A program made the translations under genes and the position numbers. Shown here piece after piece: positions 46,572-49,662 of a stretch of 64,000 bases of DNA. The notes below the pieces were generated by a model. It did no database searches and was not told the DNA's origin. It saw only the letters and a list, made by a program, of their open reading frames with translations. The stretch comes from Microbacterium gallinarum (GTDB lineage Bacteria; Actinomycetota; Actinomycetes; Actinomycetales; Microbacteriaceae): contig NZ_JACSPM010000003.1 of assembly GCF_014837165.1 (NCBI RefSeq), forward strand, positions 186,001 to 250,000. The letters run 5' to 3'. Within the stretch, counting starts at the first letter, position 1. Each line of letters starts with the position of its first letter.

Positions 46572-46577
46572 GTCATG

Positions 46578-46651
46578 TAGGGCGGGTGGGACTTGAACCC
46601 ACGATCGTCGGGTTATGAGCCCGCTGCCTTGACCAGCTTGGCCACCGCCCC
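46578..46651 (-). tRNA. tRNA with CAT anticodon (Met, subtype unresolved)
   Basis: The acceptor GGGGCGG/CCGCCCT closes with one G-T pair, the D arm is GCC/GGC, the anticodon loop is CTCATAA with CAT at 46615-46617, and the T arm is GTGGG/CCCAC with TTCAAGT. Three G-C pairs next to the anticodon loop are shared with initiator tRNA, but position 1 is G. Elongator Met or Ile2 (lysidine type) remain possible. Confidence 0.85.
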
Positions 46652-46664
46652 CTGCGGACCGAGC

Positions 46665-48686
46665 CTAACGCCCGGACACCTTGTTCATCGCCGTGCCGAT
46701 GTAGGAGTACTTCACGAAGACCTCCGCCGCGATGCCCGCCTCTTCGAGGAGGCCCTGGACCGCACTGAGCATGTAGCTCGAGTCCCACCCCATGTAGAGC
46801 CAGGTGTCGTCGTCGAGGCGGTCCCACTGGCCGTTCCACGACTGCGCGGTGTACACGGGCCCGCCGCGTCGCGCGCTGTAGGCGACGACGGCAGGACGGG
46901 CATCCGCCCACAGGCGCTTGAACACGCGGTTGAAGAGGTACTTCACGTCGGGCACCTCCCAGTGCTCGCCGCGGTACTCGACGTAGTCCCACTCGCGCTC
47001 CCAGCCGCGCGGCCATCCCCGCCGGTGCACGGCATCGAGGATCGGCGTGAGACCGTCGTCGTCGATGAGCGTGGCGCCTGGTCGCGCCCAGATCTCGACG
47101 AAGCGCTGCCCCAGGGTCGCGGACCGCTCGGCGATCGCGGCGGTGCCCCAGCTCTCGCGCTGGGCGAGGTCCGAGGTGAGGCCGACGGCGCTGCGACCGT
47201 AGACCGCCCGCTTCTCGGGGAATGACGCGTCGAACGCGCGGAGGGACAGCTCCTCTTCGAGGAGGGTCAGGTTGCCGAGCGTCGTGGCGAGGGCGCGGTG
47301 GCTGTTCTGCTCGTCTTCGCTGTACTCGGACCACGCGCGCACGCCGTCTCCCGACCACGACTCCGACGGCGACAGCGGGACGATGTGCTCGACGTCGAGT
47401 GGCGCCCCACCGTCGACGCCCGCGAGGCGCCCCAGCACGTACGCCGCGTGCGGCAGCTCGGAGTACTTGAGGGCGGCGCGGATGCGCTCGTCGGACGGGG
47501 TGATGCGCGAGATGGCGGTGACGAGATCGGCCTCACCGCCCTCGCGGGCGCGGATCAGGCGTGCGACGAGCCGGTCGTTGTCGAGGCCGGCCACGGTTCG
47601 GCGCAGAAGGAGCGCCTGCAGGTGCTCCAGCGTGCGGATCAGGTCCGCCCGTTCCAGCGCGCCTTCGCGCCAGTCTCGGTACACGCGCATGACGAGCGGG
47701 CGGACTGCCGTGCCGAAGACGCCGAGGTGACCGAGATGGCGCGAGACCGCGGCATCCGTCTCCCTCTCCGGCTCGAGCAGCACACGATAGATCGCGGAGT
47801 ACCCCCGCCACTCGGCGGCGTGGCTCCGGAGGTCGTCGATCTCGAGTCGCGGGAAGACCTGCCGGAAGGTGTCGTACACGCCGCGGCTGCGCGCGACGAC
47901 AACCTCGCGGCCCGTCGTCATGATCAGGTACTGACGCCAGAACTCGGCGATCGAGTCGCCGGTGTTGCGCTCGATCGGGAGCCAGTACTCCGCCTCGACC
48001 TCTCGCTGTTCGTCGTGCGAGAGCCCCATCAGCACGTAGTTGTGGATGAGCTCGTGGTCGCGCAGCGGCTCGCCCGTCGAGTTGAGGCTCTCGAAGATCT
48101 GCTGCGCGTTCGCGCCGGCCCGCAGGGTGATGGCGACGTGCTCCAGCTTCTGCAGGCCTCGCCAGATGTGCGGGGCCTCATCCGCGCTGATCTGGCTGCG
48201 GAAGAAGGCGTAGTTGTCGTCGAAGCGCGAGTCTCGCGCGCCGTCGCCCTCGCCGCGGCGGTCCAGGACGACGTCCTCGAACACCTCCGCCCACGCCCGG
48301 TGCGGACGCAGCTTCGTCGCGTCCGCGTCGTGCGGCTGCACGAGGACGCGGGCGAGCTCGGCGGCCAATCCCGGGTCGCTCTCGCGGACCGTGTGCTGCA
48401 GGGCGGCGACGAGGAGCATGATCGTCGTGATCCGCTGCTGCCCGTCGATGAGGACGAGTTCGGGCTGGTCGCCGGCGGTGGTCGATGACAGGATCGACCC
48501 GATGAAGTGCATGTGGCGGTCGTCGAGATCGGCGACCTCGCGGATGTCGGACAGCAGCTGCTCGCACGCGCCGATGTCCCAGCGGTACTGCCGCTGATAG
48601 ACCGGGACGACGATGGTCCAGTCGCCTGCCGAGAGCCAGCGGATCGTGTTGACCGCGGTCGCGTCGACATTGGTGGCCCTGACCAT
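46665..48686 (-). CDS. DUF262-DUF1524 (GmrSD-like) putative nuclease
   Basis: The 673-residue protein has an N-terminal DUF262 ParB-like domain: QRQYRW (31-36), the nucleotide-binding DGQQR (81-85) and IFESLNSTGEPL (197-208). A DUF1524 HNH-type domain follows, with VEHIVPLSP (432-440) and GNLTLL (471-476). An extension of about 130 residues (545-673) ending in a YMLSAVQGLLEEAGI helix has no family I recognise. GmrSD proteins of this fold restrict modified DNA; related ones work in phosphorothioate and BREX-like defence. The stop is 14 bases from a tRNA gene and no partner gene is adjacent, so a stand-alone defence nuclease is likely but unproven. Confidence 0.82.
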   Translation of the reverse strand: MVRATNVDATAVNTIRWLSAGDWTIVVPVYQRQYRWDIGACEQLLSDIREVADLDDRHMHFIGSILSSTTAGDQPELVLIDGQQRITTIMLLVAALQHTVRESDPGLAAELARVLVQPHDADATKLRPHRAWAEVFEDVVLDRRGEGDGARDSRFDDNYAFFRSQISADEAPHIWRGLQKLEHVAITLRAGANAQQIFESLNSTGEPLRDHELIHNYVLMGLSHDEQREVEAEYWLPIERNTGDSIAEFWRQYLIMTTGREVVVARSRGVYDTFRQVFPRLEIDDLRSHAAEWRGYSAIYRVLLEPERETDAAVSRHLGHLGVFGTAVRPLVMRVYRDWREGALERADLIRTLEHLQALLLRRTVAGLDNDRLVARLIRAREGGEADLVTAISRITPSDERIRAALKYSELPHAAYVLGRLAGVDGGAPLDVEHIVPLSPSESWSGDGVRAWSEYSEDEQNSHRALATTLGNLTLLEEELSLRAFDASFPEKRAVYGRSAVGLTSDLAQRESWGTAAIAERSATLGQRFVEIWARPGATLIDDDGLTPILDAVHRRGWPRGWEREWDYVEYRGEHWEVPDVKYLFNRVFKRLWADARPAVVAYSARRGGPVYTAQSWNGQWDRLDDDTWLYMGWDSSYMLSAVQGLLEEAGIAAEVFVKYSYIGTAMNKVSGR

Positions 48687-48820: not shown

Positions 48821-48840
48821 CCAAGGTAGGCTTGCCTTAG
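48821..48840. promoter_or_regulatory. Candidate iron box (DtxR/IdeR site)
   Basis: AAGGTAGGCTTGCCTT (48823-48838) is a near-palindrome (12 of 16 positions symmetric) resembling the DtxR/IdeR consensus with AGG and CCT half-sites. It lies 49 bases upstream of a predicted 2OG-Fe(II) oxygenase gene. Confidence 0.55.
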
Positions 48841-48888: not shown

Positions 48889-49662
48889 ATGGGTTACATC
48901 AAGTCCGCCGCTCTCGAGGAGACCGGCTACGTCGTCCTCGACCGCTACAACCAGGAGCTCGACCCCAAGGAGTGGCTCGACATCGAGTACAACGACTGGA
49001 AGTCGTCGGGCGACACGCGCTTCGCGCCGCTCGCCAGCGCATTCGGCGACATCGAGTGCAACGGCTTCTGGAACCACAAGCCGCCGCGCACCGACAAGGA
49101 CGGCGTCTGGATCGACTCGCAGGTCGAGAAGGCCCCGAATCTCACGCGCCGCGCGCAGGAGCCGGGCGCGAACGTCGGTCGCTGCCGCGTCATCGAACTG
49201 CAGCCGACTCCCTACGGTGAGACCCTCTACAACCTTCACCAGGACGACAACAACCGTCTCAACCCGGACGGCACGGGCTGGGTGGTCCGCGGCTTCTTCA
49301 ACCTGACCGACGACAAGGACAGCTTCTTCGTCCTCCGCGAGAACCGCACCGACCCCGAGGGCGAGGTGCGCATCGCCCTCCCCGCCGGCGCGCAGCTCAT
49401 CATCGACACGCAGCGCCTGTGGCACGCGGCGACGCACATCGGCACCGAGCCGCGCTACTGCCTCATCACCTCGTGGACCTCCGGTCCCGAACTGGACGCG
49501 TACATCGAGAAGTACCACGGCGTGAACCACGTCGAGAGCGTCCACGTCCCGCAGGACGTGCTCGAGGCCGGCTACGCCGAGCAGGCCCGCAAGGACGCCG
49601 CCCGCGCCGCCTACTACGCCGCCAAGGGCCAGGCTGCGGTGAATGTCATGAGCGAGGCCTGA
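48889..49662 (+). CDS. Predicted 2-oxoglutarate/Fe(II) oxygenase-like protein, iron-box associated
   Basis: The 257-residue protein shows a jelly-roll oxygenase pattern: NLHQDDNN with a His-x-Asp pair (about residue 123), GFFNLTDD and FFVLRE strands, then LIIDTQRLWHAATHIGTEPRY with the distal His and an Arg for 2-oxoglutarate. I infer the family from this facial-triad layout; it is not a confident database assignment. The ATG at 48889 has GAAAGG nine bases upstream. An iron box upstream suggests induction when iron is scarce, as for siderophore-related enzymes. It ends at a strong terminator. Confidence 0.65.
   Translation: MGYIKSAALEETGYVVLDRYNQELDPKEWLDIEYNDWKSSGDTRFAPLASAFGDIECNGFWNHKPPRTDKDGVWIDSQVEKAPNLTRRAQEPGANVGRCRVIELQPTPYGETLYNLHQDDNNRLNPDGTGWVVRGFFNLTDDKDSFFVLRENRTDPEGEVRIALPAGAQLIIDTQRLWHAATHIGTEPRYCLITSWTSGPELDAYIEKYHGVNHVESVHVPQDVLEAGYAEQARKDAARAAYYAAKGQAAVNVMSEA

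What the first reader, a model, noticed from the sequence alone, without database searches (positions are those of the whole stretch)
46578..48686. Stand-alone DUF262/DUF1524 nuclease candidate beside a tRNA
The gene has the GmrSD-type DGQQR and HNH motifs intact plus a 130-residue C-terminal extension I cannot assign. It is a single gene next to a tRNA, a common entry point for defence genes, in an otherwise core region. The extension may provide a new target-sensing function.
Basis: partly seen in the sequence, partly recalled or inferred. Interest (0 to 1): 0.55.

Follow-up and report, generated by a model that had tools for sequence, protein, structure and literature searches.

The report
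Iron-linked oxygenase–pseudonuclease gene pair
A gene that looks like a phage-DNA-cutting enzyme has lost key parts of its cutting site and travels together with an oxygen-using enzyme gene that carries an iron-type control site, so it looks like half of a conserved two-gene unit of unknown purpose rather than a lone defence gene.

Summary
The gene is real (46665-48686, minus strand, 673 aa; Microbacterium): GmrSD_N, GmrSD_C and a conserved C-terminal domain. (1) The HNH site is not intact: the metal-binding Asn is absent in 75 of 75 proteins counted (Ala 51, Thr 18, Ser 6) and the general-base His in 10 of 75, while DGQQR is kept in 75 of 75; 13 of 13 other GmrSD homologues compared keep both residues. 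(2) It is not stand-alone: a divergent 257-aa gene with a 2OG-Fe(II) oxygenase fold lies beside it in 77 of 80 loci (the other 3 end at a contig edge); among 59 congeners 39 have both, 19 neither, 1 is cut by a contig end. (3) A tRNA is within 100 bp in only 10 of 78 loci; the pair also sits at other sites and in Subtercola and Herbiconiux. The oxygenase leader carries a conserved iron-box-like palindrome and a hairpin with compensatory changes, without Rfam match. The extension has the lowest dN/dS in 9 of 12 pairs and weakly resembles SeqA's DNA-binding domain. Best reading: an iron-linked two-gene module with a probably nuclease-dead GmrSD-like NTPase. Function is untested.

The parts
46665..48686 (-). 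GmrSD-like protein, 673 aa, here called GMR
   Evidence: ORF; Pfam; 40 of 59 congeners carry it; dN/dS 0.03-0.22 in 12 chosen pairs
48033..48614 (-). GmrSD_N / DUF262 domain, residues 25-218, with DGQQR 81-85
   Evidence: DGQQR 75 of 75
47112..47411 (-). GmrSD_C / DUF1524 HNH domain, residues 426-525, active site degenerate
   Evidence: residue counts; comparison with 13 other homologues
47385..47387 (-). codon of His434, the HNH general base; present here, lost in 10 of 75 proteins counted
47244..47246 (-). codon of Ser481, at the place of the metal-binding HNH Asn; never Asn in 75 proteins counted
   Evidence: motif from PMC4619093
46686..47066 (-). C-terminal extension, residues 541-667; weak SeqA-like fold match (570-663)
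48889..49662 (+). divergent partner, 257 aa, 2OG-Fe(II) oxygenase fold with HxD...H...R, here called DOX
48826..48839 (+). DtxR-type iron-box-like palindrome in the DOX leader
   Evidence: site list in PMC1382209
48843..48866 (+). conserved hairpin in the DOX leader, with compensatory changes
   Evidence: no Rfam match
46577..46651 (-). tRNA-Met (cat), 13 bp downstream of GMR; not a constant neighbour

Best explanation
GMR and DOX are one divergently transcribed two-gene module of Microbacteriaceae. Shown by sequence: they stay together across sites and three genera and share presence and absence in the genus; the HNH site of GMR lacks residues needed for catalysis in relatives; the DOX leader carries a conserved iron-box-like palindrome and a hairpin. 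Inferred: a DtxR/IdeR-type repressor lowers DOX expression when iron is plentiful and releases it under iron starvation. Inferred: GMR no longer cuts DNA; it works as a nucleotide-driven (DGQQR) DNA-binding switch in which the pseudo-HNH and the SeqA-like extension contact DNA, and it controls or guides its partner DOX, whose oxygenation of a still unknown substrate is the catalytic output. The module is therefore more likely a physiological (iron-linked) or regulatory system derived from a restriction-type protein than a lone restriction enzyme.
For: Linkage: in 34 of 34 congener loci read (own included) the two genes are adjacent and divergent; 39 of 59 congeners have both, 19 neither, 1 (G023) GMR only, cut by a contig end at its 5' side; 77 of 80 DOX loci from named genomes (the best 80 of 344) have GMR beside DOX, the other 3 start at a contig edge. 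Presence/absence needs 4 changes on a 25-genome tree. In 28 loci without the tRNA-Met/DUF3145 setting, no ORF cluster other than those lying on GMR or DOX is in all. Degenerate HNH: 0 of 75 keep the metal Asn and 10 of 75 lack His434, against DGQQR 75 of 75 and GN 75 of 75; 13 of 13 other GmrSD homologues keep both. Published changes of an HNH Asn to Ala in SspE (N676A) and DndI (N541A) impair nicking and abolish phage protection (passages). Constraint: the extension has the lowest dN/dS of four domains in 9 of 12 pairs, the HNH domain the highest in 7 of 12. DOX: candidate Fe/2OG residues in 81 of 81, oxygenase fold. Iron: the best palindrome match lies 42-54 bp before DOX in 78 of 78 loci, with at least 12 of 14 bases in 70; in the window's genome like sites lie just upstream of a SIP/FecCD operon and a heme oxygenase; two DtxR-family genes are present.
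Against: No expression, binding or activity data. The iron box is 14 bp, the right part of the 19-bp DtxR consensus, and its left part is poorly conserved; pattern counts in the genome are not above the reversed-pattern control (5 against 18; 1 against 2), and of six other places found only two are firmly iron genes. The box lies on the DOX side; the GMR side of the intergenic region is not conserved by eye, so iron control of GMR is not shown. The GMR and DOX trees of 15 genomes do not fully agree: second-site copies are one group for GMR but not for DOX, and DOX joins G000 to G011, GMR joins it to G049 and G052. Distant DOX relatives and DOX paralogues have no GMR in the stretches read, so DOX can work alone. 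DOX model confidence is moderate (pLDDT 71.8; TM-scores 0.25-0.45). The closest outside GMR (G195, L139) keeps the HNH Asn residues, so an ancestor probably had a complete site. hhalign finds no sequence link between the extension and E. coli SeqA.
Confidence: 0.42

Rival explanations
1. GMR is still an active modification-dependent restriction nuclease with a rearranged metal site, and protects against phages; DOX is only a neighbour or supplies something for it.
For: GmrSD_C fold and EH plus GN are kept in most copies (65 of 75 keep His); best PADLOC match is Orf5 at 1.3e-76 over 24-533; best structural matches are DndI and SspE, both nickases in phage defence.
Against: Metal Asn absent in 75 of 75 and His lost in about six separate groups, HNH domain least constrained in 7 of 12 pairs, although the other homologues compared keep these residues (13 of 13).
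Confidence: 0.2
2. DOX writes or erases an oxidised DNA base mark and GMR reads it through the SeqA-like extension: a reader and writer pair for defence or replication control, tuned by iron.
For: Strict pairing; extension 570-663 aligns to SeqA bound to hemimethylated DNA, Z 7.9, rmsd 3.0, 94 aligned; AlkB is among DOX fold matches.
Against: 2OG oxygenases act on many kinds of substrate and the top fold matches are protein and small-molecule hydroxylases; the SeqA match is at a level the tool calls possibly only a common arrangement, with no sequence support; distant DOX relatives have no GMR in the stretches read.
Confidence: 0.17
3. Two unrelated genes that merely stay neighbours: an iron-controlled oxygenase and a fixed former defence gene.
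For: DOX relatives elsewhere lack GMR, and GMR of G195 has no DOX on its 5.6-kb contig; conservation of the intergenic region stays on the DOX side; the trees of the two genes differ in places.
Against: The pair is found together at several genomic sites and in three genera, 77 of the 77 loci that could show it; gains and losses coincide; GMR is under purifying selection, not decaying.
Confidence: 0.17
4. A genomic island integrated at a tRNA 3' end brought in GMR.
For: At one site the pair lies between tRNA-Met and DUF3145; at the other, in some genomes, beside tRNA-Gln. A tRNA is within 100 bp in 9 of 34 congener loci (my count).
Against: Only 10 of 78 in the named set, in both orientations; in the window the tRNA 5' end faces the gene; GC content does not depart from the flanks. 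Integrases and border repeats were not searched for.
Confidence: 0.05

Closest known systems
DndI (PDB 9JFL) and SspE (6JIV, 7DRS, 7DRI), phosphorothioate-sensing DUF262-DUF1524 nickases
   Same: Same two-domain architecture; among the best solved matches by sequence (an entry 20YV, named only DUF262 protein, ranks between them) and the best by fold (Z 18.9 and 17.1-17.3); DGQQR kept.
   Different: Their HNH Asn is needed for nicking and defence (passages); GMR has Ala, Thr or Ser at the metal Asn, an extension, and an oxygenase gene as partner. Dnd or Ssp modification genes were not searched for here.
GmrSD / BrxU type IV restriction enzymes
   Same: Pfam GmrSD_N and GmrSD_C above cut-off; BrxU fold match Z 10.7.
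   Different: E/D-H-N-N active site not complete; not stand-alone; extension gives no match to the ones named for this family (DUF4268, DUF4357, DNA_binding_1; PMC4619093 passages; Pfam).
CciT-CciO and PiuA-PiuC, iron-regulated 2OG-Fe(II) oxygenases in co-conserved pairs
   Same: An oxygenase of this class under an iron regulator, paired with another gene (PMC12004947, passages); PiuC is among the DOX fold matches.
   Different: There the partner is a TonB-dependent outer membrane receptor in Proteobacteria and the regulator is Fur; here it is a GmrSD-like protein in Actinomycetota and the box is DtxR-like.
SeqA C-terminal domain (PDB 1IU3)
   Same: Fold alignment to extension residues 570-663, rmsd 3.0 over 94 residues.
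   Different: No sequence similarity (probability 0.3%); moderate model confidence there.

Membership tests
GmrSD type IV restriction enzyme | DUF262 domain with (I/V)DGQQR | tested here: met
   Pfam E 1.7e-29; DGQQR 75 of 75
GmrSD type IV restriction enzyme | DUF1524 domain | tested here: met
   E 9.9e-14, above cut-off; fold
GmrSD type IV restriction enzyme | complete E/D-H-N-N nuclease site | tested here: not met
   metal Asn 0 of 75, His 65 of 75; controls 13 of 13 complete
GmrSD type IV restriction enzyme | cleaves modified phage DNA | not testable with these tools
   needs purified protein or phage assay
SspE / DndI phosphorothioate-sensing nickase | encoded in a genome with dnd/ssp modification genes | not tested
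   no search for dnd or ssp genes was made
2OG-Fe(II) dioxygenase (for DOX) | HxD...H iron ligands and distal Arg | tested here: met
   H, D, H, R in 81 of 81; that these four are the ligands is assigned by eye
2OG-Fe(II) dioxygenase (for DOX) | fold of the family | tested here: met
   62 matches at E<=0.001; the 50 shown include PHD2, AlkB, PhyH, PiuC; best Z 8.7; model pLDDT 71.8; no significant Pfam, NCBIfam or PDB sequence match
DtxR/IdeR regulon (for the DOX promoter) | 19-bp box TTAGGTTAG(G/C)CTAACCTAA or close to it at the promoter | tested here: inconclusive
   right 14 bp conserved (12 or more of 14 in 70 of 78), best 19-bp score mostly 12 of 19; like sites precede SIP/FecCD and heme oxygenase
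DtxR/IdeR regulon (for the DOX promoter) | regulator of this family in the genome | tested here: met
   two PF02742 genes in G000
SeqA-like DNA-binding domain (for the extension) | SeqA fold or sequence | tested here: inconclusive
   fold Z 7.9; sequence profile probability 0.3%; Pfam none
tRNA-borne integrative island | constant association with a tRNA 3' end | tested here: not met
   10 of 78 within 100 bp, both orientations; 9 of 34 in congener loci

The most novel reading that the evidence does not exclude
An iron-gated epigenetic pair: a former restriction enzyme turned non-cutting reader, with a SeqA-like domain, is tied to an iron-starvation-induced oxygenase that writes or erases the mark it reads, and the oxygenase mRNA has its own structured leader not known to Rfam. 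It would join iron status to DNA modification, defence or replication timing in one small transferable module.
Probability: 0.13. Interest if true: 0.87.

Novelty: new variant of a known kind. Interest (0 to 1): 0.6.

Why it matters
DUF262-DUF1524 proteins are readily scored as defence nucleases by homology. This family shows the active site lost across three genera while the NTPase motif and extension stay under strong selection, so such calls can be wrong. It also offers a concrete, testable link between iron supply and a restriction-derived protein, a leader hairpin without a family, and an unassigned domain that can be cloned and tried for DNA binding.

Tried and rejected
Rejected: tRNA-borne island as the main account. 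Rejected: phage-borne gene (pattern scans of viral contigs with A2 and A1 gave no relative). Rejected: general riboswitch reading of the leader. Model R1 is found at DOX (places compared by eye) in 23 of 24 pair-positive genomes among G000-G034, the exception being G023; the 11 pair-negative congeners and 23 other genomes searched have nothing better than E 0.03, with stricter filters that lose weak matches; one extra hit, G028:C12, E 8e-4. It is not in 8 paralogue and 17 distant DOX stretches apart from one chance-level hit. Rejected: leader as Rfam family. Rejected: the palindrome as an RNA stem, because its varying positions 1 and 13 do not compensate. Led nowhere: NCBIfam for GMR and DOX, PHROGs for DOX, PDB sequence search for the extension and DOX, extension search in 396 genomes of the phylum (4 hits: 3 of the genus and one weak), family search around G195 (1 of 18, itself), paper searches (nothing on this pair seen in the listings). 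The meaning of the PADLOC names Orf5 and HEC-06 was not established. Folds missing from VIA lists prove nothing. Tree caveat: the 25 genomes were those whose DUF3145 region had been fetched, not all 59; dN/dS pairs were 12 of my choosing.

Full report
What is there. The ORF at 46665-48686 (minus) encodes 673 residues, here called GMR. A tRNA-Met lies at 46577-46651 on the same strand, 13 bp beyond the GMR stop, and the finding's coordinates include it. Pfam gives GmrSD_N at 25-218 and GmrSD_C at 426-525, both over their cut-offs, and nothing for the rest. The window lies in a 3.35-Mb genome (G000); its nearest relatives in the named collection are titled Microbacterium.

The gene is common in its genus. 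A full-length or nearly full-length match is in 40 of 59 congeners (own genome included) at 63-94% identity to the window; no match of that level is in the 39 genomes of other families of the order. In one search the extension alone was found in 12 of 297 genomes of the order: 11 of the genus and one, G195, of another family (32% identity). So this is an established, partly lost gene of the genus, not a rare arrival.

It has a partner. In all 30 congener loci first read, and in four more, the gene upstream and divergent is the same 257-aa protein, here called DOX. A separate search for DOX gives the same genomes: 39 of 59 have both, 19 have neither, and G023 has GMR only, cut at its 5' side by a contig end (of DOX-like genes G023 shows only the paralogue). 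In the named genome collection 344 stretches encode a DOX relative; the best 80 were kept. GMR lies divergent beside DOX in 77 of these 80; in the other three (L167, L232, L240) DOX begins 59-92 bases from the contig end. These 80 include records titled Subtercola and Herbiconiux. The 264 weaker relatives were not seen, and are likely to include paralogues without GMR.

The pair sits at several sites. In many genomes it lies between tRNA-Met and DUF3145. Of ten pair-negative genomes whose DUF3145 region was read, two (L098, L101) have NIPA, tRNA-Met and DUF3145 close together without the pair, one (L103) has about 0.9 kb in between, and in seven NIPA and tRNA-Met were not found there. G008, G013, G015, G018 and G026 carry the pair elsewhere, four of them beside tRNA-Gln, and their tRNA-Met/DUF3145 site lacks it. 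On a tree of 25 genomes from five core proteins, presence needs 4 changes, of which well-supported branches force 3. In a quick GMR tree of 15 genomes the second-site copies form one group (support 91); in the DOX tree they do not, and the two trees differ on the neighbours of G000. In 28 loci without the tRNA-Met/DUF3145 setting, no ORF cluster other than those lying on GMR or DOX is in all 28; the next is in 13 (some loci are short). A tRNA is within 100 bp of the GMR end in 10 of 78 loci of the named set, in both orientations, and in 9 of 34 congener loci (my count). The tRNA idea is therefore not the main account, though two tRNA genes do border two of the sites.

The HNH site is broken. 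The published GmrD motifs are (I/L/V)(E/D)H(I/L/V)xPQ, L(G/A)NLxLLxxxN and NxxFxxKK, with E/D-H-N-N predicted as the active site (PMC4619093, passages). Over 75 GMR proteins (74 loci of more than 620 residues plus the window; three broken or short copies, L184, L239 and L242, were left out) DGQQR is complete in 75, the GN Asn in 75, His434 in 65 (else Asn 4, Tyr 2, Ala 2, Ser 1, Arg 1), and the metal-binding Asn in none (Ala 51, Thr 18, Ser 6). Judged by residue and nearest relatives, not by a tree, the His losses fall in about six groups; in the earlier set of 25 two copies have Trp and Thr there. As a control, 13 other GmrSD homologues from the genus and order, including G195, keep His and both Asn. 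In SspE the change N676A in the HNH motif impairs nicking and abolishes phage resistance, and in DndI N541A does the same (PMC9646914 and PMC11662687, passages). The passages do not place these Asn by alignment to GMR; I take them as the metal-binding one from the context.

Yet the protein is kept. In 12 pairs of my choosing dN/dS of GMR is 0.03-0.22. The extension has the lowest value of four domains in 9 of 12 pairs and the HNH domain the highest in 7 of 12; DOX is 0-0.075. Mean column identity is 0.84 for DUF262, 0.83 for the extension, 0.75 for the middle and 0.73 for HNH; 57 of 128 positions of the extension are the same in at least 74 of 75.

Structures. The GMR model (pLDDT 80.0, 47 sequences) matches DndI (Z 18.9), SspE (17.1-17.3) and BrxU (10.7) (Foldseek). 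Its extension, residues 570-663, matches the SeqA domain bound to hemimethylated DNA with Z 7.9, rmsd 3.0, 94 residues; the next unrelated row has Z 5.6. The tool warns that Z under 8 may be only a common arrangement; Pfam and hhalign give no sequence support. The SspE domain 7DRI also spans to residue 671 of the model, so a shared C-terminal part with SspE is possible and was not resolved. The DOX model (pLDDT 71.8) matches 2OG-Fe(II) oxygenases: PHD2, AlkB, PhyH, PiuC and others, best Z 8.7, TM-scores low. The residues that look like its iron and 2OG ligands are the same in 81 of 81.

The leader. The DOX leader has, 42-54 bp before the start codon, a palindrome of the form (T/G)TAGGCTTGCCT(A/T)A; the best match is there in 78 of 78 loci, with at least 12 of 14 bases in 70. 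It equals most of the right 14 bp of the DtxR box, and resembles listed C. glutamicum sites (PMC1382209, passages). The best score of the leader against the 19-bp consensus is 12 or more in 70 of 78 loci against 70 of 1560 shuffles, but the loci are related. In G000, patterns of this type find six other places. One is directly before a siderophore-interacting protein with FecCD, one before a heme oxygenase, one before a solute-binding protein of unsure substrate, one between cytochrome oxidase subunit III and a gene that looks like trpD; two were not examined. Reversed control patterns are as frequent or more frequent, so the support comes from position, not number. By eye 5 of 8 DOX paralogue loci have a similar palindrome. 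Two DtxR-family genes exist in G000. The GMR side of the intergenic region is not conserved by eye. By contrast the 24-bp hairpin next to the palindrome is. In 45 leaders 99.0% of cells pair and 6 cells in 2 of 7 pairs carry compensatory changes: no shuffle of 500 reached this number of cells, 16 reached the number of pairs, the number of further pair types is no higher than in shuffles, and slid versions have none. No Rfam family matches. A model of it finds it at DOX in 23 of 24 pair-positive genomes, with one weaker extra hit.

Reading. The observations fit an iron-linked two-gene module in which a restriction-type protein has probably lost cutting but kept its nucleotide switch and a sensor. 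How GMR and DOX act on each other is inference. A paired, Fur-controlled oxygenase of this class is known in Caulobacter (CciO with CciT; PMC12004947, passages), so pairing of such an oxygenase with an unlike partner has a precedent. Distant DOX relatives stand without GMR in the stretches read, so the oxygenase may be the older part and GMR an addition in this family. G195's GMR keeps a complete HNH site and lies on a 5.6-kb contig without DOX; its neighbours look like restriction-type genes by eye but have no Pfam match.

What is not known: substrate of DOX, activity of GMR, iron response, phage effect. Novelty was checked only by the named paper searches, in an open-access library; nothing on this pair was seen in the listings.

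Noticed in passing
window 46577-46651; L004, L016, L075, L086, L087, L098, L101: The tRNA-Met gene at this site is turned round relative to NIPA in different lineages: opposite strand to NIPA in the window, L004, L016 and the empty site L098, same strand in L075, L086, L087 and L101.
   Followed up: partly
G000:C11:146061-146720 (L138, L001): The same genome has a second GmrSD protein with a complete HNH site; its C-terminus looks like a DNA_binding_1 (alkyltransferase-like) domain by eye.
   Followed up: partly
G000:C6:1400630-1401379 (L132) and L133-L137, L140, L141: A DOX paralogue (60-64% identity) exists in 15 congeners, own included, without GMR in the stretches read; in L135, L136, L137 and L140 it is beside a divergent ~349-aa protein; two copies of that protein tried have no Pfam family.
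   Followed up: partly
L142-L158: DOX relatives in other classes of the phylum have recurrent neighbours that look like methylmalonyl-CoA mutase, PAPS reductase and protoheme farnesyltransferase by eye, so the wider family may be metabolic.
   Followed up: partly
G028:C12:233271-233305: A second, weaker copy of the DOX leader hairpin (E 8e-4) away from DOX.
   Followed up: no
L176: A record titled Planococcus sp. APC 4015 carries the Microbacterium-type locus and is probably mislabelled.
   Followed up: no
L139 (G195:C149): The closest outside GMR, with complete HNH site, lies on a short contig between ORFs that resemble restriction-type genes by eye.
   Followed up: partly
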